Positions 1 to 11,161 of a stretch of DNA of 64,000 nt are shown here, in pieces. The translations under genes were made by a program, and so were the position numbers. The DNA comes from Streptomyces sp. NBC_01294. Lineage in GTDB: Bacteria > Actinomycetota > Actinomycetes > Streptomycetales > Streptomycetaceae. The notes beneath the pieces are model-generated. The model saw only the letters and a list, made by a program, of their open reading frames with translations, was not told the DNA's origin and did no database searches. The stretch's first letter is position 1. Each line of letters begins with the position of its first letter. Where the stretch lies: positions 1,550,001 through 1,614,000 of the forward strand of contig NZ_CP108423.1 in assembly GCF_035917235.1 (NCBI RefSeq), given 5' to 3'.

Positions 1-2370
1 GGAGATCTCGCGCACCTGCCCGGCCGCCCCGGCCCCCCGCAGGACGTCCCTCAGGACCACGCTCATCGCGGGCCCCGCCGTGTACGGGATCAGATCCCCG
101 TCCATGCTCTCGGGCACGAGCGGAAGCCCACGGGACCGAAGACCGACCACCAGGCTCACCGCGGTGCCCGGATCCCGGGCACCGGACGCCCCGGCACCGG
201 ACGCCCCCGCGGAACCGGCCCGCGCGTGCGTCGTCATCGCCTCGCGGAAGCCCGGCTGTTCCACGAGGGCCCGGCCCGACAGGAACACCATGCGGTCCGG
301 CCAGACCCCGTGGACGACGCCGAGCAGCTCGCCGTCGTGGGAGACCGGGCCGCCGCGGAAGTGCGTCCAGCTCTCGGGCTCGGCGGAGAGCCGGAGGAGC
401 TCGCCGTTGCGGGCGCCGTCGTACGGGGCCACCTCGCCCGTCAGCGCGACGGCTTCCCCCCGGTCCGTACGGCCGTCGACGCGCACCCGCGCCCGCCCGG
501 CGTCCGTCTCCGCCCAGGGCAGCGGCTGCGGCCACGCGGCCGGATCCGCCAGATCCTCGTCGGCCAGCAGCAGGAACACCCGGGGCAGCGCGTCGTCCCA
601 CCACACCGCGCGGCAGGAGACCTCCCGGTCGCCGGCCCGCACCCAGGCGACCGTGCTCGGGGCCAGCGCGGCGTCCCCGACCGTGAGGACGAGGCGGGGC
701 GTCAGCAGGGTGCCGACCTCCTGGGGCTCGGCCATGGCGTCGTAGCGGACCCGTACGACCCGCTCCCGCAGGCCCGGGTCCTGCGGCGGCCGCGACACCG
801 CGAACGGCAGCGCCTCCTCGGCCACCCGGCGGCGGCCCGCCGGGCCCTCCTCCCGGCCCGCGGCGACCCGGACCGCGGAGAAGTCCGGGCCGGTGCCCCG
901 GTTGCGGGACATGAACTCCCACACCCGGCGGCGGACCAGCTCCCGTACCGCGGCCACGTCCCCGCGCAGTTGCGAGCCGAGCAGGGCGTCCCGTACGCCG
1001 GGCAGGAACTCGAACTCCGCGTGTTCGGCGTCCTGTTCGGCGCCCCAGGGTGCGAAGAGCCCGCCGAGGGCGACCTCCGCGAGGTGGCCGTGCTCCGAGT
1101 CCCGCAGCAGGGAGCGCCGGACCAGGGTCATGACCGGCAGGGTCAGCGGTACGGCGGCCAGGTGCGCGGCGAGCTGCTGGGCCGTCGGGGAGGCGCTCGC
1201 GCGGAACTGTTCCACCACCTCCAGGGCGCTGCGGCCGCCGCCCGGGGCGGGATCGTCCACGGCGCTCGCGGCCCCCGGCTCCGCGTCCAGGCGCAGGCAG
1301 GCCAGGCGCCGCCAGCGGCCGTCGCCGGAGACCACGCGCACCAGCCGGGCCAGGCTGCCCGAGGCGACGCCGACCACGGGGACGACGGACGCGGCGGCGC
1401 GGCGGCGCCCGCCGCGGGCCCGGCGGACGGCCGGGACCTGCTGCCAGGAGCGGGTGGCGGCGGCCGGGCGGTCCGCGCGGACGGCGAAGGGCACGGGCCG
1501 GACGGCGCCGCGCGTCCAGAGCCGTTCGGGCAGGACGTTCAGGACGGCCACGGCGTTGTGCGCGCACCACTGCCGGAGCACGCCCTGCACCGGGGCCTGC
1601 CGCCAGCCGCCCGCCACGGTGTCGGAGAGGACGAGGATCAGCCGGCGGCCGGCCGGGTCGGCCAGTTCGAGCGGGTTGCGGGGCGGGCCGCCCCGGCCGC
1701 GGGTGAGCATCGGGGTGGCGCCGGGTCCGGTGCCGGTCAGCTGCCAGGTGCGCACGTCGCGGAAGACCCCGCTGCGGGTCAGCACGCGGCGCAGTTCGTC
1801 CACGTGGTCCGACCAGAGCAGCATGGAGTGGTGCGTGTCGACGACCAGCGCCAGGTCCAGCCAGCGGCTCTCGGCGGGGCGCAGGACCGGGGTCGGCACC
1901 ATCCGCTCGATGCTGCGTTCCACGGTGAGCTGCTCGTCGAGTTCCTCCCCCGGGCCGCCGATGGAGCGCCGGCCGACGGGGCGCAGGGAGCGCATCAGGG
2001 CGAGCGGGTCGTCGAGGGAGGCGGCCCGGGGCAGCCGCAGCGCGGAGCCCCGGCGCCCCGCGGCGGCGTCGACCGGTTTCCCGGCGGGGTCGGGCAGGGC
2101 GGCCGGGAAGAGCTGGACGGCCGGCTCGACCCCGTCCGGGCCGCCGGGCCCGGGTACGGGACCGGCCTCGGGCGACGGCGAAGGCGGGGCGGGCGGCGGC
2201 GGCTGGCGGTCCGGCGGTTCGGCGTCGGACGCCCCGGACCGGCGGGCCCCCGCCGGGTCCACCCGGGCCGCCAGCCACAGGATGTCGGCGATCTCCTCCG
2301 CCCCGACACCGGGGCGCGGTCCGCTGTCGTCGGCGCCGTCCGCGAAGGCGGCGAGCAGCCTCTCGATCAC
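1..2370 (-). CDS. SAV_2336-type vWA-like protein with degenerate trypsin-like domain (3' end beyond window)
   Basis: This large protein starts with GTG at 2370 and stays open to the window edge (at least 790 codons). The GTGA overlaps the stop of the upstream MoxR gene by 4 nt, so translation is probably coupled. The N-terminus (about residues 1-40, 'ERLLAAFADGADD', 'EEIADILWLAARVDP') matches the N-terminal region of SAV_2336-related Streptomyces proteins. Near residue 171 'LDLALVVDTHHSM' is a vWA-like core with a MIDAS-like aspartate. From about residue 540 there is a trypsin-like fold: 'LTPRLVLTVGDAAL' stands where TAAHC would be, and 'HFRGGPVSHDG' where the catalytic GNSGGP would be. Both the His and the Ser are replaced, so the domain is probably non-catalytic. 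I infer a regulatory or adaptor role in a vWA-MoxR-caspase conflict complex. The family name is well supported; the biochemical role is not known. Confidence 0.85.
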   Translation of the reverse strand, partial: MIERLLAAFADGADDSGPRPGVGAEEIADILWLAARVDPAGARRSGASDAEPPDRQPPPPAPPSPSPEAGPVPGPGGPDGVEPAVQLFPAALPDPAGKPVDAAAGRRGSALRLPRAASLDDPLALMRSLRPVGRRSIGGPGEELDEQLTVERSIERMVPTPVLRPAESRWLDLALVVDTHHSMLLWSDHVDELRRVLTRSGVFRDVRTWQLTGTGPGATPMLTRGRGGPPRNPLELADPAGRRLILVLSDTVAGGWRQAPVQGVLRQWCAHNAVAVLNVLPERLWTRGAVRPVPFAVRADRPAAATRSWQQVPAVRRARGGRRRAAASVVPVVGVASGSLARLVRVVSGDGRWRRLACLRLDAEPGAASAVDDPAPGGGRSALEVVEQFRASASPTAQQLAAHLAAVPLTLPVMTLVRRSLLRDSEHGHLAEVALGGLFAPWGAEQDAEHAEFEFLPGVRDALLGSQLRGDVAAVRELVRRRVWEFMSRNRGTGPDFSAVRVAAGREEGPAGRRRVAEEALPFAVSRPPQDPGLRERVVRVRYDAMAEPQEVGTLLTPRLVLTVGDAALAPSTVAWVRAGDREVSCRAVWWDDALPRVFLLLADEDLADPAAWPQPLPWAETDAGRARVRVDGRTDRGEAVALTGEVAPYDGARNGELLRLSAEPESWTHFRGGPVSHDGELLGVVHGVWPDRMVFLSGRALVEQPGFREAMTTHARAGSAGASGAGASGARDPGTAVSLVVGLRSRGLPLVPESMDGDLIPYTAGPAMSVVLRDVLRGAGAAGQVREIS

Positions 2371-3587
2371 ACCGTGGGCCCGGTCAGGTGCTGCATGACG
2401 GTGGCGAGGAAGCGGTCCCGGTCCGCGGGGGCCGACCAGGCACCGGCGAGGCGCAGCTGGATCGCGTTGAGGAGCTGGTCCGTGGCCAGGTCCCCGTCCT
2501 CGGCGCGGTCGAGGAAGGTCCGGACGAGTTCCTGGTACTCCTCGCCGGCCTCGATGTCGACACCGAGCCGGCGCCGCACGATGCGCGCGAGCTTCTCCGG
2601 TCCGGGCGGCTCCAGGTGGAGGCGGACGCAGCGGCGCAGGAAGGCGGGCGGGAAGTCGCGTTCGCCGTTGCTGGTGAGGACGACGATGGGGAAGTACCGG
2701 CACTGGACGCGGCCTTGGGTGATCCGCACGGCATCGTCGGGGTCGTCGTCGGTGCCGATGGCGACGGTCGGGTCCTCCTGGGCGAGGCGGGCGAGCTCGG
2801 GGATGAGGAAGCCGCCGTCCTCGAAGACGGTGAGGAGGTCGCCGGGGAGGTCGATGTCGCTCTTGTCGATCTCGTCGACGAGCAGGACGCGGGGGCGGTC
2901 CTGCGGCAGCAGGGCGGTGCCGAGCGGTCCGAGCCGCAGGTAGCGGGAGATCGACGGGGCGGCCGGGGAGGCGGGGGCGGGCGCGGGTAAGGCGGCGCCG
3001 GAGGAGACGGAAACGGAGAGGGAGGCGGCGGAGGCCGAGGCGGGGGGCGCCGAGGCGGGACCGGCGGCGGGGTCCGGGGGCGGTGGTACGGCCGCGGCCG
3101 CTCCGGCGATCCCGGCGCTCCCGGCGGCGAGGGTCGCGGGCAGCGCTCCCGGCGTGCGCAGCTGCTCCAGCCCTGCCTCCTGGAGGCGCCCGATGGCGTC
3201 GTACAGGTACAGCCCGTCCCGCAGCACGGTCCGGCTGGTGATCGGCCAGTGCAGTACGGGCCCCAGGCCGAGGTCCGAGGCGATGCTGTGCGCGAGCGTG
3301 GACTTGCCGACGCCCGGCTTCCCGGTGACGAGCAGCGGCCTGCGCAGGTACAGGGCCGTGTTGACCACGTCCTTCTCGGGCTCGTCGGGTACGTAGCCCT
3401 CGCCGCGCCGCCGGGTGCGCTCCCAGGCCGGGCCCTCGCACCCGGGCGGGGCGTACGCCGGGTCGGGCTCGCCCGTGAAGTCCCGCCAGGGCGGCGGGGA
3501 TCCGGCCTCCAGGCGGGCGCGCCGGTCCGCGCCCTCACCGGTCCCGTGGTACAGCCACCAGTCCTTCACCACTGCCTCTGCCTCCAT
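2367..3587 (-). CDS. MoxR-like AAA+ ATPase
   Basis: This 406-residue protein has a Walker A motif 'GKPGVGKST' at about 89-97, followed by a single-domain AAA+ core. Walker B 'VLLVDEID' lies at 234-241. The second half has a sensor-like 'LTSNGERDFPPAFLRRCVRLHL', typical of MoxR-family ATPases. Between residues 150 and 212 sits an Ala/Pro/Ser-rich insertion that looks disordered. MoxR ATPases act as chaperones or remodelers and usually work with a vWA partner, here the downstream SAV_2336-type gene whose start overlaps this stop (GTGA). The caspase-like gene ends 32 nt upstream. The start is ATG at 3587. In this context it is probably the NTP-dependent switch of the locus. Confidence 0.9.
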   Translation of the reverse strand: MEAEAVVKDWWLYHGTGEGADRRARLEAGSPPPWRDFTGEPDPAYAPPGCEGPAWERTRRRGEGYVPDEPEKDVVNTALYLRRPLLVTGKPGVGKSTLAHSIASDLGLGPVLHWPITSRTVLRDGLYLYDAIGRLQEAGLEQLRTPGALPATLAAGSAGIAGAAAAVPPPPDPAAGPASAPPASASAASLSVSVSSGAALPAPAPASPAAPSISRYLRLGPLGTALLPQDRPRVLLVDEIDKSDIDLPGDLLTVFEDGGFLIPELARLAQEDPTVAIGTDDDPDDAVRITQGRVQCRYFPIVVLTSNGERDFPPAFLRRCVRLHLEPPGPEKLARIVRRRLGVDIEAGEEYQELVRTFLDRAEDGDLATDQLLNAIQLRLAGAWSAPADRDRFLATVMQHLTGPTV

Positions 3588-3619
3588 CGTCGGTGTCGCG
3601 GTCCGTCAGTGGTCGGGGG

Positions 3620-5815
3620 TCAGGCCAGGGACCGGAGGCCCGGCACGTCGTCGGGATCGTCCCACAACAGCACCAACTGGTCTCCCCCCGCAGTGGGTTG
3701 GTGGGGGCGCATGGCTCCCGCGGCCGCTCCGGCGGCCGCCCGGCGCACCTCCCGCAGGCGCGCGGGCAGGGCGAGTACGTCGAGTGCGCCGGGGCCGGCG
3801 GCGTGGCCGGTGGCAGGGGCGGTGCCGGGGCGGTCGTGGTCCGGTCCGGCAGGGGCGTCCGGTCCGGCGGATCCCGCCCGGCCGCCCGGCCCTGCGGGTC
3901 CGGCCGGTCCTGCGGGTCCTGCCGGTCCCGTCTGCGCGGCCGGTGCGAGCAGGTCGAGGAGCGCGGGCGCCGGTGCGCCGCCCCCGCGCCGCCAGACCGC
4001 CACCGGCACGCCGCCTTCGAGTACGGCTTCCAGCAGCCCGGCGTGCGGCGCGGCCGTGGTCTGCGCCAGGACGCAGGCGGGCGCCGGTCCCCCGGCCAGC
4101 TCCATCCCGAGCGCGTCCGTGACCTCCGCGTCCTCCACCACCCGCACGGCGTCGGGGTGCCGGCCGCCCTGGGCGCACAGCCAGCGCCAGCTCGTGTGCC
4201 ACTCGGCCCGGGTGTCCGCCCGCTCCTGCGGGCAGCGCACCACCACCTGGTAGAGCAGGCCGAGGGCGCGGCGGCGGCCGGCCGGGCCGCGCGGCACAGG
4301 CCACTGGTCGAAGTCGGCGTCCAGCAGCTCGTACGGCACGTGGAACTCGACGCGGTCCACCGTCCCGTACGACTGCCGCACCCCGTCGGCCGCCCCGGCA
4401 TCGCCCCCCGAAGCCCCGCCGACGAGGGCGAGTTGCCGTACGAGCTCCTCCCGTACGGCGTCCAGCCGGACCGGTTCGCCCTCCGACTCCCATATGTGCT
4501 CGGCCCGTTCACCCCGCAGCCACATCCGGGCGAGGTACCCGGGCCCGCCGCCCGGCGGGGTCTCCAGCCGCACGTGCACGACCGTCGTGCGCGGCGGGGG
4601 CGGGGGCGGGGGCAGCACGGGCAGGGCCAGGCGCTCACGGGTGGCGCGTACCCAGTCCCGCAGCCGGGCCGCCCACTGCGCGTCGCCCGCCGTCGCGCTC
4701 CGGTCCGCGAGGAACCGTACGAAGGGCACGGCCAGCGGCATCCCGCCGCGCCCGCCCTGGCGCTCGTCCAGGTCCTGGGCCACCTCCAGGAGGCCGTCGC
4801 CCGGCAGGCCGGCGCGCACCGGGGTCGTACAGCCGGCCGCCTTGAACGCCCACGCGTAGGCCTCGTAGGCGCACGCGGGCAGGTCGCGGCCTTCGAACAG
4901 GTCGCCGAGCCCGTCCCAGGCCTGCTGGTCCAGCCGTCCCGCCCGGGGCAGTGCGGCCCCGGGCAGGTCGTCGTCGAGGAAGGAGCAGGCGTCCCAGTCC
5001 CGGTCGACGAGGAACTGCGGCAGCTGCCAGCCCTCGCCGCGCTCGCGCAGTTCCCGGAAGGTGCGGTGGATGCTGCGGGCGGCGACGGGCAGCCCGCTGA
5101 CGCTCTCCCGTACGGAACGGCCTCCGAGTTCGCCGATCAGGGCCTCGGTGAACCGGCCGGCGCCGCGCTCGGCGTCGTTCTGCGCGGCCTCGCCCTCGCG
5201 GGAGGCGTAGAGCCGGAACTGCCGCCGGCCGGGCACCGAACTGCCGCCGCCGTAGTCGTTGTTGCCGAAGTTCCAGCGGGTGTCGCGGGGTGCGTCGACC
5301 CGGCAGGAGTCCACGAGTGCGGCCTGGAGCGGGAAGCGGCGCTGTTTGACCAGGTCGGTCCGCCACCAGCGCAGCGCCGAGTCGAGGTTCAGGTGGCGGA
5401 TCTGGCTGGGGCGGGCGTCGGCGCAAGGCAGCATCAGCTCCTGGCGGGGTCCGAGGTAGCCGTGCCCGGCCCAGAAGATCCACAGCAGGTCGCCGTCGCA
5501 CTGCGGGAGTTCGTCGAGCAGCGCCGACTTCACGTTCTCCTCGGTCGCCGGCCGGTACGCCGTGCGCAGGTCGGCCATGGCCGGGGAGTCCGACCAGTCG
5601 AGTGCGTCCGGTTCGTCGAGCGGGGACAGCAGCAGCCGGACGTTGCCGGGCGGCACCTCCGCGGGCCCGGTCAGCCACCGGGCGAAGCGCAGGGCGTCGC
5701 GGGCCGGGCCGCGCAGGTTCCAGCGGTGGCTGATGTCGTAGCGCTCGACCCCGGCGACGAGCGCGAAGGTGCGCCGCGGCCCGAGGGCCGGGGGCAGGAA
5801 GTCGGCGGGAGTCAC
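3620..5815 (-). CDS. Caspase-like peptidase with VMAP-C-type C-terminal domain
   Basis: This 731-residue protein opens with a caspase/metacaspase-like fold. The catalytic dyad is visible as His118 in 'WIFWAGHGYLG' and Cys171 in 'ALVDSCRVDA', after the N-terminal strand 'RTFALVAGVERYD'. The middle (about 230-400) is helical and unassigned. The C-terminal ~330 residues ('VVHVRLETPP', 'VEFHVPYELLDADFDQWP', 'LYQVVVRCPQERAD', 'QLVLLWDDPDDVPG') resemble the vWA-MoxR-associated protein C-terminal (VMAP-C) domain. A Gly-Pro-Ala collagen-like run interrupts this domain at about residues 630-660. Its start lies 4 nt after the alpha/beta hydrolase stop, and MoxR follows 32 nt downstream. I infer that a protease effector is fused to the VMAP module and held in check or triggered by the MoxR/vWA partners. 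Confidence 0.85.
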   Translation of the reverse strand: MTPADFLPPALGPRRTFALVAGVERYDISHRWNLRGPARDALRFARWLTGPAEVPPGNVRLLLSPLDEPDALDWSDSPAMADLRTAYRPATEENVKSALLDELPQCDGDLLWIFWAGHGYLGPRQELMLPCADARPSQIRHLNLDSALRWWRTDLVKQRRFPLQAALVDSCRVDAPRDTRWNFGNNDYGGGSSVPGRRQFRLYASREGEAAQNDAERGAGRFTEALIGELGGRSVRESVSGLPVAARSIHRTFRELRERGEGWQLPQFLVDRDWDACSFLDDDLPGAALPRAGRLDQQAWDGLGDLFEGRDLPACAYEAYAWAFKAAGCTTPVRAGLPGDGLLEVAQDLDERQGGRGGMPLAVPFVRFLADRSATAGDAQWAARLRDWVRATRERLALPVLPPPPPPPRTTVVHVRLETPPGGGPGYLARMWLRGERAEHIWESEGEPVRLDAVREELVRQLALVGGASGGDAGAADGVRQSYGTVDRVEFHVPYELLDADFDQWPVPRGPAGRRRALGLLYQVVVRCPQERADTRAEWHTSWRWLCAQGGRHPDAVRVVEDAEVTDALGMELAGGPAPACVLAQTTAAPHAGLLEAVLEGGVPVAVWRRGGGAPAPALLDLLAPAAQTGPAGPAGPAGPAGPGGRAGSAGPDAPAGPDHDRPGTAPATGHAAGPGALDVLALPARLREVRRAAAGAAAGAMRPHQPTAGGDQLVLLWDDPDDVPGLRSLA

Positions 5816-5819
5816 GCAG

Positions 5820-7061
5820 TCACCCGATCTCCGCCTCGGTCACCGCCTGTTCGATCCGCTCGTAGAGGGAGTCCTGTTTCCAGTAGGCGCTGTGGCAGGC
5901 CGGGAAGGGCTGCCGGCTGCCGACCTCGTGGTCGGTCACGCGCGGGTCGCCGGGGAAGACGGGCCCGGCGAGGTAGGCGAGCACGTCCTGGCGGTCGTAG
6001 ACGTTGAGCCAGCGCGGGAAGCCGTACGGGAGCTTCGCGCCCGGTTCGAGCGCGGTCAGCGCGCCGAGCTCGTAGAGGAACGGGGCCTGGGAGCCCACGG
6101 TGACCAGCAGGCGCGCCCCGGGGACGGCCTCACCGCGGGCCGCGGCGAGGGCGAGGAGGTCGACCAGGGCGATCCCGCCGAGGCTGTGGCCGATGAGTAC
6201 GGTCGGGCCCGGTCCGGCGGCGATCCGGGCGTGCAGGAAGTCGCGCAGTTCGTGGCCGCGGGCCTGGTAGCGCAGGATGTCGCCGAGTGCGGGAGTGGCG
6301 CCGACGGTGAGGGAGCCGCGCCAGGCGTTGAGCAGCGGCTGGGTGGTGACGCGCAGGGCGAGGCGGCCCAGGACGGCGGCCGCGCGGGCTCCGGGCACCC
6401 GGGCGTCACCGCCGAGGCGGGTGGTGAGCAGTTCGACGAGGCGGTCGCGTTCGGCGCCGGTGCAGTCGGCCTCGGCCCCGGCGGCGGCGAGCGCGGCGGC
6501 GGTCACGGACCGGGCCAGCGCGGTGGCCAGCTCCCGGGCCTGCGGCTCCTCGGCGGCGCGGTCCCCGGCCCGGGCCGCCTCGGCGGAGCGGGCGGTGGAC
6601 TCCAGGGCGTCGGCGAAGTCGGCGGCGAGGCCGGTGCCGTGCAGCAGGGCGCCGAGCTCGTCCCCGGTGGGCGGCGGCGCGGGCGGTAAGGAGGTCAGCA
6701 GCGCGAGGACCCGGGCCCCGGCGGGCTGTACGCCGGGCATCGCGAAGCCGTCGTCGTGCGCGTCCCCGCCCTCCCAGCCGGCCTCGGCCAGGACCCGCAG
6801 CTCGCACAGCGGGTCGGCGAGGAGCAGCGCCCATTCGGCCGTCTCCGCGTCCACGGGGTCGGGCGCGGCCTCCGGCCGGGGCCGCAGTCCCGGCACGGAC
6901 CGGCCGCCCGCGCCGAGGGTCGCCCCGAACCGGTCGCCCCAGTAGCAGGAGTCGACGGCCGCGTCGGGGAACCGGGCCGTCAGCCGCTCCCGGACCAGCG
7001 CGAACAGTCTGTCGTGCCGCTCGCGCCGCACTCCCGTGCCGTGGACAAAGAGAAATCGCAT
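5820..7061 (-). CDS. Alpha/beta hydrolase (lipase-like)
   Basis: I place the start at the ATG at 7061, which begins 'MRFLFVHGTGVRRERHD' and gives 413 residues. An in-frame GTG 14 codons upstream adds only a low-complexity leader. 'FVHGTG' is the oxyanion-hole strand and 'TVLIGHSLGGIALVDLL' the nucleophile elbow (GxSxG with Ser). A C-terminal 'VTDHEVGSRQPFPACHSAYW' supplies a plausible catalytic His. No signal peptide is visible, so it should be cytosolic. It is the first gene of the four-gene caspase/MoxR/vWA operon, with only 4 nt to the next start. It may be an additional lipid- or ester-cleaving effector of that module, but its substrate is unknown. Confidence 0.85.
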   Translation of the reverse strand: MRFLFVHGTGVRRERHDRLFALVRERLTARFPDAAVDSCYWGDRFGATLGAGGRSVPGLRPRPEAAPDPVDAETAEWALLLADPLCELRVLAEAGWEGGDAHDDGFAMPGVQPAGARVLALLTSLPPAPPPTGDELGALLHGTGLAADFADALESTARSAEAARAGDRAAEEPQARELATALARSVTAAALAAAGAEADCTGAERDRLVELLTTRLGGDARVPGARAAAVLGRLALRVTTQPLLNAWRGSLTVGATPALGDILRYQARGHELRDFLHARIAAGPGPTVLIGHSLGGIALVDLLALAAARGEAVPGARLLVTVGSQAPFLYELGALTALEPGAKLPYGFPRWLNVYDRQDVLAYLAGPVFPGDPRVTDHEVGSRQPFPACHSAYWKQDSLYERIEQAVTEAEIG

Positions 7062-9744: not shown

Positions 9745-11161
9745 CTAACCCTGCGGGGTCCGGAGCTGCGGCGGGCTGTGGTGGGGCGGGTAGGCGGTGG
9801 CCGTCGGGGCCGTCGGCAGGCGCCACTTGGACAGGACCCGGACCACTGTGGACGGGCCGAGCAGGGCGTTCGGCGAGGTGGACAGCGACAGCACCCCGAA
9901 GAACCGGCGGGAGATCGCCGGGTCGGTGTTGGCGCCCACCATCACCCGTGACATGTAGCGCTGCAGGAACCGGGTGGCCCGGTCCGGCGGCGGGCCGTCC
10001 GTCTCCGCGTACCGCATGTCCTCGCTGGTGGCGATCTGCCAGGCCACCTCCGCGGTGGCCACCGTCCTGCGCTGGATGCGGCGGGCAGCCGCGGGGACGT
10101 TCCGCGGCTCCAGGTCGCGGATCTCCTTGCGCAGGGCGTCCGCCGCCAGCGCCGCCACCGTCATCCCGTGCCCGTACACCGGGTTGAACCGGCAGGCCGC
10201 GTCGCCGAGCACCACGAAGCCCGCGGGCCAGCGGTCCATGCGCTCGTAGTGGCGCCATTCGTTCGCGGTGGAGCGGAAGCCGGTGGCGGAGGTGAGGGGC
10301 GTCGCCTCGCGGAGGGCGTCGTAGAGCGCGGGGCTGCGCAGACTGCGGGCGAAGTCGAGGAAGTCCTCGTCCTTGGTGGGTGGGGCGTGCTCGCCGTTGC
10401 CGATGAGCGTCACCAGCCACCGGCCGCCGTCCTGGGGTACGAGCACCGCCCCGCGCGGGACGTCCGGGCGGCCCTGCACGTACATGCCCTGCCAGCGGCG
10501 CGCCGGATCGGGCGGAATCTCGTAGTGGCGGCTGGAGTATCCGAGACCGGAGTCGTATCGGGTGACCGCCGGCGCCCGATGGCCGAGGGCCGCGAGCCAG
10601 GCCGGGGCCTTGGAGGTCCGGCCCGTCGCGTCGATCACGAACCGCGCGGCCAGCGGGTCACCGTCGCGGAACTCCACGCCGGTCACCGAGCGGCCGTCCG
10701 GCCCGCCGACGAGTCCCGTGGCCGGGCTGCCGGAGCGGAGCCGGATCCGCTCGTGCCGCAGGACCTCCCGGCGTACGGTCCAGTCGAGCAGCTCCCGGCT
10801 CGCCAGCAGCACCTTCTCGCCCGGCACCTGGTGGAACCAGTCGGCGGGGCTCAGCCAGAGGAAGTCCCCGGGGGTGTCCCAGCAGCAGGGCCCCGCCGGC
10901 CAGCAGCCGGTCCGTGACCCCGGGCAGCAGTTCCTCGATCAGCGCCACGCCCCGCGACCACAGCACGTGCACGTGCCGGGACTGCGGGAGCCCCGGGCGG
11001 AAGGCGGGGGCGTCCCCGGGCAGTTCGTCCCGTTCGACGAGGGTCACGCGCGCGAACCGGTCGGCGAGCACCCGCGCCGCCAACAGCCCGGCCACGCCCG
11101 CCCCGAGGACCACCGCGTGGTCGTGGGCTTCTGGGTGGTTGTCCTGATCGTCGTCACTCAT
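9745..11161 (-). pseudogene. FAD-dependent oxidoreductase, frameshifted
   Basis: The N-terminal half is read from the ATG at 11161: 'HAVVLGAGVAGLLAARVLADRF' contains the Rossmann GxGxxG for FAD. That frame loses homology after 'LLAGGALLL'. The expected continuation 'DTPGDFLWLSPADWFHQVPG' is in the next frame and runs on to the stop at 9745, including the second FAD signature 'GFVVLGDAACRFNPVYGHGM'. One extra G in the coding strand within the C run at about 10878-10880 explains the break. Restored, the protein would be about 470 residues, the usual length for this monooxygenase-like family. It is either a real pseudogene, a phase-variable homopolymer, or a sequencing error. The substrate is unknown. 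Confidence 0.8.

What the first reader, a model, noticed from the sequence alone, without database searches (positions are those of the whole stretch)
1..7061. Four-gene caspase / MoxR / vWA-like operon with a hydrolase: candidate NTP-dependent protease conflict system
The four genes are nearly contiguous (gaps of 4, 32 and -4 nt) and encode hydrolase, caspase with VMAP-C-like tail, MoxR AAA+ and SAV_2336-type vWA-like protein. The caspase dyad (His118, Cys171) is intact. vWA-MoxR-VMAP ternary systems are known from comparative genomics of multicellular bacteria, but the hydrolase as leader gene and the dead-trypsin SAV_2336 partner make this version unusual.
Basis: partly seen in the sequence, partly recalled or inferred. 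Interest (0 to 1): 0.8.

Follow-up and report, generated by a model that had tools for sequence, protein, structure and literature searches.

The report
Caspase defence operon with swappable module
This is a soil-bacterium operon of an already described, untested immune-like type that pairs a caspase-like protease with an ATP-driven switch; what looks new is that one part of its fourth protein is swapped between close strains while the rest stays almost the same, which points to the part that may touch the invader.

Summary
The four genes are real and lie as described, on the minus strand of an 8.5 Mb Streptomyces genome. The fourth is cut by the window edge: the whole protein has 1223 residues and ends in pentapeptide repeats. 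The operon belongs to the VMAP ternary systems of Kaur et al. 2020 (PMC7159879), caspase/hydrolase subtype. Both features called unusual are stated there: a caspase VMAP always has an alpha/beta-hydrolase neighbour, and trypsin domains on the vWA protein are nearly all dead. The order hydrolase > caspase-VMAP > MoxR > vWA holds in 15 of 15 named loci long enough to show it. One relative has the same flanks without the operon. New here: a probable degenerate cyclase module (residues ~722-915) of the vWA protein is hypervariable. It is the least conserved of four segments in 1757 of 2040 (non-independent) ortholog pairs; in some pairs with a 98-99% identical vWA part, identity falls abruptly to about 50% at its start. 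The VMAP middle region, proposed as sensor, is not hypervariable here. I favour the vWA arm as the part that contacts the invader, with caspase and hydrolase as executioners; function is untested.

The parts
5820..7061 (-). alpha/beta-hydrolase, 413 aa; HGTG motif, GHSLGG nucleophile elbow Ser293, His390, Asp356/Asp359 (catalytic roles recalled, not tested)
   Evidence: these residues invariant in 8 of 8; no Pfam family above cut-off
3620..5815 (-). caspase-VMAP protein, 731 aa
5003..5776 (-). caspase domain (res 14-271), dyad His118/Cys171
4616..4933 (-). VMAP middle region (res 295-400), helical, probably VMAP-M0-like
   Evidence: PF19916 precomputed in 6 of 120 listed homologs, not matched in the window protein itself; helices in the model
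3653..4537 (-). VMAP-C domain (res 427-721)
   Evidence: PF20028, 95.5 bits, cut-off 27
2367..3587 (-). MoxR AAA+ ATPase, 406 aa, with N-terminal motifs WWLYHG and PPWRDF
   Evidence: W10 W11 Y13 G15, P33 W34 R35 F37, GKPGVGKS (89-96) and D238 E239 invariant in 9 of 9
1..2370 (-). SAV_2336/vWA protein, first 790 of 1223 aa; gene ends outside the window at G000:C1:1548701
922..2301 (-). SAV_2336 N-terminal region with vWA domain and its extensions (res 24-483)
   Evidence: NF041121 365.9 bits; Asp178, Ser182, Asp250 invariant
256..768 (-). inactive trypsin-like domain (res 535-705)
   Evidence: Ser absent in 132 of 132, His present in 7 of 132; HtrA-like fold in an ortholog model
1..207 (-). 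start (res 722-790) of the hypervariable, probably degenerate-cyclase module; res 791-1223 incl. pentapeptide repeats lie outside the window
   Evidence: pentapeptides PF13576 80.8 bits

Best explanation
It is a VMAP ternary conflict system of the caspase/hydrolase subtype. SHOWN by sequence: caspase dyad and hydrolase Ser/His/Asp kept, ATPase core kept, vWA metal site kept, dead trypsin, pentapeptide repeats, conserved gene order, absence of the whole operon from one relative with the same flanks, and a hypervariable module in the vWA arm. INFERRED: at rest the MoxR ring holds the vWA protein and the caspase-VMAP protein in an off state. The variable module/pentapeptide arm of the vWA protein binds something made by an invader. 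MoxR ATP hydrolysis then remodels the complex, freeing the caspase. The caspase, together with the co-encoded hydrolase (as partner or substrate), attacks host targets, so the infected hyphal compartment dies or stalls. The dead trypsin and the cyclase-like domain act as binding platforms. Confidence: about 0.95 that it is a member of this class, about 0.45 for this direction of signalling (the alternative proposed for other ternary systems in PMC10907252, passages seen).
For: Membership. Accessory unit: G054 has the ion-channel and protease flanks (84.4% and 85.9% nt) while the 9.2 kb between them, which holds the operon and most of a small ORF, is replaced by about 1.2 kb without detectable similarity. 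Variable module: mid segment lowest of four in 1757 of 2040 pairs; mean column entropy 1.94 bits against 0.43 for vWA plus C-extension; abrupt drops, e.g. P0199/P0210 95-100% up to the 40-residue window at 641 and then 44-75%, P0141/P0149 89-100% up to the window at 681 and then 40-59%. The VMAP middle region is not hypervariable (median 91%, min 88% when caspases are 96-100% identical, 16 pairs). Caspase dyad 71 of 71; hydrolase residues 8 of 8; hydrolase and caspase genes adjacent in 31 of 34 loci.
Against: No experiment. Effectors that bind invaders as decoys (part of Kaur's model) would show the same variability, so the pattern does not prove sensing. Pairs are not independent (few proteins recur in the sharpest ones, and some records appear twice), and in the 51 pairs with vWA 98-100% identical the module still has a median of 72% and reaches 100%; P0159/P0166 and 14 other listed pairs keep the module at 87% or more although their vWA parts are only 93-95% identical. 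Exchange is inferred from protein pairs; breakpoints were not mapped on DNA. dS is raised too (0.82 against 0.21, window against L015). L046 has a hydrolase beside a VMAP without caspase (EAD2 instead). In G012 the VMAP is truncated and MoxR/vWA lie elsewhere.
Confidence: 0.5

Rival explanations
1. Kaur model: the VMAP protein senses the invader, MoxR remodels the complex, and the caspase cuts the vWA protein to release its C-terminal dead-enzyme/pentapeptide arm, which acts as decoy, inhibitor or scaffold.
For: Published proposal (PMC7159879, passages; summarised in PMC10907252). A conserved G-x-R-x-V...PFA stretch between the vWA C-extension and the effector arm (Gly512 132 of 132, Arg514 130 of 132, Phe523 132 of 132) persists in L026, where the downstream domains are replaced by TPRs, and could be a processing site for an Arg-preferring paracaspase-like enzyme (that preference is recalled for MALT1, not tested here).
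Against: The VMAP middle region is conserved in this family, unlike a hypervariable sensor. The stretch could simply be part of the fold; the model has low confidence there. Among 13 diverse sequences my pattern misses L023, and L028 has Gln for Arg.
Confidence: 0.3
2. Housekeeping or developmental assembly: a MoxR-vWA chaperone with a protease, used in hyphal growth or regulated cell death during development, not against invaders.
For: MoxR-vWA pairs elsewhere are assembly chaperones (section 8 of PMC7159879).
Against: Patchy: hydrolase relatives in 32 of 150 Streptomyces genomes, absence from one relative with the same flanks, replacement of one module. A core developmental function would be expected in most species.
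Confidence: 0.15
3. The hydrolase-caspase pair is the real unit and the ternary genes are an optional regulator.
For: Hydrolase and caspase are adjacent in that order in 31 of 34 survey loci: 14 with MoxR and vWA downstream (VMAP-C found in the caspase ORF in 11 of these), 10 after a complete VMAP-MoxR-vWA set plus 1 such locus cut short, 5 without ternary genes on that strand in the fetched stretch, 1 with a truncated VMAP only.
Against: Stretches without ternary genes are 12-19.5 kb long and one lies at a contig start; my HMMs come from close orthologs, so a divergent VMAP could be missed (as in L049, L051, L053).
Confidence: 0.25

Closest known systems
VMAP ternary system, caspase/alpha-beta-hydrolase subtype (Kaur et al. 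2020, PMC7159879)
   Same: VMAP-C, MoxR with both N-terminal motifs, vWA protein with extensions, gene order VMAP>MoxR>vWA, hydrolase neighbour of the caspase, inactive trypsin and pentapeptide repeats in the effector position
   Different: In this clade the middle region of VMAP is not hypervariable; the variable part is a cyclase-like module (with the pentapeptide half in some pairs) inside the vWA protein, replaced between close strains without a change of architecture
DGR-diversified ternary systems of Thiohalocapsa and cyanobacteria (PMC10907252, passages seen)
   Same: Variable C-terminal part on the vWA protein proposed as sensor, VMAP peptidase as effector
   Different: Pfam finds no C-type-lectin/formylglycine domain in the window's vWA protein; variation looks like allele exchange, though reverse transcriptases were not searched for
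vWA-MoxR-VMAP genes coupled to CARF proteins near type III CRISPR loci (PMC10910872, passages seen)
   Same: Same three core components
   Different: CRISPR genes were not searched for here; Pfam finds no CARF domain in the four proteins
Two other cassettes in this genome (L007; L008, with a second copy near the other chromosome end)
   Same: MoxR and SAV_2336-like genes; L008 also has a hydrolase relative and a VMAP-M2 protein with a GHG...DTC caspase-like dyad (seen by eye)
   Different: L007 VMAP carries trypsin instead of caspase; L008 has VMAP-M2 and a TIR domain in the vWA protein, while Pfam finds no VMAP-C and PADLOC no caspase in it

Membership tests
VMAP ternary system | VMAP-C domain | tested here: met
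   PF20028 95.5 bits, cut-off 27
VMAP ternary system | MoxR with N-terminal motifs WxhapG and PsWRxa | tested here: met
   WWLYHG and PPWRDF; key residues invariant in 9 of 9; motifs as printed in PMC7159879
VMAP ternary system | vWA protein with two metal-site aspartates | tested here: met
   Asp178 and Asp250 in 128 of 128 sequences with letters there
VMAP ternary system | vWA N-terminal extension with [D/E]xxx[D/E]xxxa | tested here: inconclusive
   Exact pattern absent from the N-terminus (one search finds it only at 445, 605, 1174); nearest is Glu25-xxx-Asp29-xxx-Leu33, Leu in place of the aromatic residue, with Trp32 beside it
VMAP ternary system | gene order VMAP > MoxR > vWA | tested here: met
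   window, and 15 of 15 named loci whose contig is long enough (L024 ends after MoxR)
VMAP ternary system, caspase subtype | caspase VMAP accompanied by an alpha/beta-hydrolase gene | tested here: met
   window and 16 of 16 named loci; from the hydrolase side 31 of 34 survey loci have an adjacent caspase
Caspase superfamily (paracaspase-like) | His/Cys dyad and caspase fold | tested here: met
EACC1-associated caspase (NF047832) | score over the curated cut-off | tested here: not met
   36 bits, cut-off 140
anti-phage defence system | protection from phage | not testable with these tools
   no bench data; PADLOC: caspase model E 5e-14, weak ATPase matches of MoxR (best E 1.3e-4), nothing for hydrolase and vWA protein
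class III nucleotidyl cyclase (vWA-protein res 722-915) | sequence and fold relation to cyclases | tested here: inconclusive
   Two mid-segment profiles reach ORFs of 320-547 aa in 5 of 8 fetched loci (E 6e-5 to 2e-4 with one, 8e-9 to 6e-5 with the other; some of these ORFs are near copies); the one tested matches soluble guanylyl cyclase 3et6 at 4.6e-5; strand order fits. Reverse profile finds 2 of 132, hhalign nothing (where caspase against CHAT also fails), Pfam none
class III nucleotidyl cyclase (vWA-protein res 722-915) | metal-binding aspartates | tested here: inconclusive
   In the window protein neither is at the aligned place; L022, P0229 and L027 have an Asp close to the first place and L027, L028, L136 one close to the second, so loss in the whole family is not established. 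Which residues bind metal is recalled

The most novel reading that the evidence does not exclude
The cyclase-like module (and, in some strains, the pentapeptide half) of the vWA protein is a swappable recognition module: strains exchange it by recombination at the end of the dead trypsin, changing what triggers a constant MoxR/caspase/hydrolase machine. This would put the sensor in the vWA arm, opposite to the published VMAP-middle-region proposal, and would be a strain-level diversification without a diversity-generating retroelement (whose presence was not searched for).
Probability: 0.3. Interest if true: 0.7.

Novelty: new member of a known kind. Interest (0 to 1): 0.42.

Why it matters
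VMAP ternary systems are common in Streptomyces (VMAP-C in 124 of 150 genomes), but in what I saw of the papers listed there is no experimental test of one. Which component touches the invader is proposed differently in two papers. A clade with constant machinery and one exchanged module gives a clean test: swap that module between two strains and ask whether the trigger changes.

Tried and rejected
VMAP-C as a dead CHAT (caspase-like) domain: hhalign of 41 diverse VMAP-C against 21 CHAT domains gave no support (score 7.9; of 30 CHAT loci one fragment was left out and 8 of the other 29 dropped because the extracted core held a stop). Caspase against CHAT also scored nothing, so the test is insensitive.

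vWA domain by fold: the second model has low confidence over residues 11-167 and 277-530, so nothing is claimed from it for those parts. The hydrolase profile has no credible PDB relative by sequence (best E 0.52). MoxR as MadB: 65.6 bits, cut-off 475, rejected.

Silent donor cassettes for the variable half in the same genome: none at E <= 0.001. Ion channel beside the operon as a fifth component: rejected, it is on the opposite strand, and in G054 the same channel stands there without the operon.

First hhalign run used a global option by mistake and was repeated locally. The last homologous-protein search gave one hit and no help on the cyclase question.
Full report
WHAT IS THERE. The window is bases 1550001-1614000 of contig 1 of an 8.5 Mb genome; named relatives of the second gene are 15 Streptomyces and one Kitasatospora. 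On the minus strand lie an alpha/beta-hydrolase (413 aa), a caspase-VMAP protein (731 aa), a MoxR ATPase (406 aa) and a SAV_2336/vWA protein, with gaps of 4, 32 and -4 nt. The last gene is cut by the window; read from the genome it has 1223 residues.

WHAT IT IS. Kaur et al. 2020 (PMC7159879; sections 8, 9 part 1 and 19 read, other passages seen) described this class. They state that a caspase VMAP always has an alpha/beta-hydrolase neighbour, that nearly all trypsins in the effector position of the vWA protein are inactive, and they list pentapeptide repeats there. Literature searches: of the papers listed I saw passages of PMC10907252 and PMC10910872, and PMC8195603 and PMC9239279 only as listings; nothing I saw reports an experiment on such a system, and PMC10907252 says its own proposal is untested. 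Subscription papers and preprints are not held.

NEIGHBOURHOOD SURVEY. In 16 named loci the order hydrolase > caspase-VMAP > MoxR holds in 16 of 16, followed by the vWA gene in 15 of 15 that reach that far. From the hydrolase side, 32 of 150 Streptomyces genomes, own included, have a relative at E <= 1e-10. A caspase gene follows the hydrolase directly in 31 of 34: 14 with MoxR and vWA downstream (VMAP-C in the caspase ORF passes my cut-off in 11 of these), 10 after a complete VMAP-MoxR-vWA set, 1 such locus cut short, 5 without ternary genes on that strand in the fetched stretch, 1 with a truncated VMAP and no MoxR/vWA. Exceptions: L046 (EAD2-VMAP, no caspase found), L052 (contig end), L066 (hydrolase fragments). 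So hydrolase-then-caspase is the constant pair and its place relative to the ternary genes varies.

ACCESSORY UNIT. The operon lies between an ion-channel gene and a trypsin-like protease gene. In G054 these flanks match at 84.4% and 85.9% nt, but the 9.2 kb between them (L006 8700-17856: the operon and most of a small ORF) is replaced by about 1.2 kb without detectable similarity. In the fetched 19 kb the only trace of the four proteins is a hydrolase match at E 0.01. G054 has VMAP-C at two other places. The channel is next to the operon in 10 of 16 named loci. This is one empty site; frequency was not measured.

THE VARIABLE MODULE. Window against L015: vWA 92%, C-extension 92%, trypsin 84%, residues 722-920 30%, following segment 76%. 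Of these 128 are complete. 2040 pairs have at least 88% identity in vWA plus C-extension; the mid segment is the lowest of four in 1757. Pairs are not independent. Of 75 pairs with at least 97% there, 14 have 60% or less in the mid segment; 5 of these also keep at least 94% in the trypsin. For the 51 pairs at 98-100% the mid median is 72%, range 42-100. Profiles in 40-residue windows drop abruptly: P0199/P0210 in the window starting at 681, P0141/P0149 in that starting at 721, both staying low to the C-terminus; P0205/P0212 in that starting at 561; window/L015 mainly over 721-920, recovering afterwards. Counter-examples exist: P0159/P0166 are 93% in vWA and 95% in the module, and 14 further pairs with a module of 87% or more are listed. 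Between window and L015 dS is 0.82 in the module and 0.21 in vWA, dN 0.67 and 0.04; for L013/L016 module dS 0.33, dN 0.35. This suggests replacement by diverged alleles plus weak constraint or diversifying selection. Kaur et al. already posit recombination on chromosome arms as a source of variability; what I add is the place and sharpness of the change within one architecture. As control, in 75 caspase-VMAP proteins (2701 pairs) the VMAP middle region has median identity 91%, minimum 88%, when the caspases are 96-100% identical (16 pairs), and 83%, minimum 73%, at 88-92% (216 pairs); the caspase is a different yardstick from vWA, so this comparison is rough.

WHAT THE MODULE IS. Probably a degenerate class III cyclase domain. 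Profiles of it find ORFs of 320-547 aa in five of eight fetched loci (E 6e-5 to 2e-4, and 8e-9 to 6e-5 with a second profile); one of these matches a soluble guanylyl cyclase structure at 4.6e-5; predicted strand and helix order fits. Against: the reverse search finds 2 of 132, hhalign and Pfam nothing. In the window protein the two metal aspartates are not at the aligned places, but some relatives have an Asp close by. Strong relatives (E < 1e-10) in 150 genomes lie in 11 genomes, all in open frames over 1100 aa.

MECHANISM. See Best explanation. Shown: residues, order, one empty site, variability. Inferred: sensing by the vWA arm, relay by MoxR, execution by caspase and hydrolase. Kaur's release model remains open, and a conserved G-x-R-x-V...PFA stretch is a candidate cleavage site for it.

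Noticed in passing
L007 (G000:C1:2698000-2717000) and L008 (G000:C1:217000-236000, second copy near 8.0 Mb): Two further ternary cassettes in the same genome: trypsin-VMAP > MoxR > vWA, and hydrolase > VMAP-M2 protein with caspase-like GHG...DTC > MoxR > vWA protein with a TIR domain; the latter is present near both ends of the chromosome, probably in a terminal inverted repeat.
   Followed up: partly
L035 (G012:C1:8641000-8660500) and L137 (G012:C1:7004500-7013500): In G012 hydrolase and caspase-VMAP (VMAP-C truncated) stand without MoxR/vWA, while a MoxR-vWA pair of the same family with the variable module lies 1.6 Mb away: the operon looks split.
   Followed up: partly
L006 7749-8690 (+), just outside the window: Ion channel gene (Ion_trans, 145 bits) convergent with the end of the vWA gene, 9 nt away; next to the operon in 10 of 16 named loci.
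   Followed up: partly
window 9745-11161 (-): An FAD-dependent monooxygenase-like gene (weak squalene-epoxidase match, 20.3 bits) seems split over two overlapping frames (9745-10827 and 10658-11161): frameshift or sequencing error.
   Followed up: no
window 3620-5815, VMAP-C residues ~629-670: A collagen-like GPAGPAG... insertion in VMAP-C that is absent from the eleven other sequences in the alignment.
   Followed up: no
L047, L048, L050, L054, L055, L057, L059, L060, L062, L063: A second layout of the hydrolase-caspase pair, placed after VMAP-MoxR-vWA with the caspase as a separate gene.
   Followed up: partly
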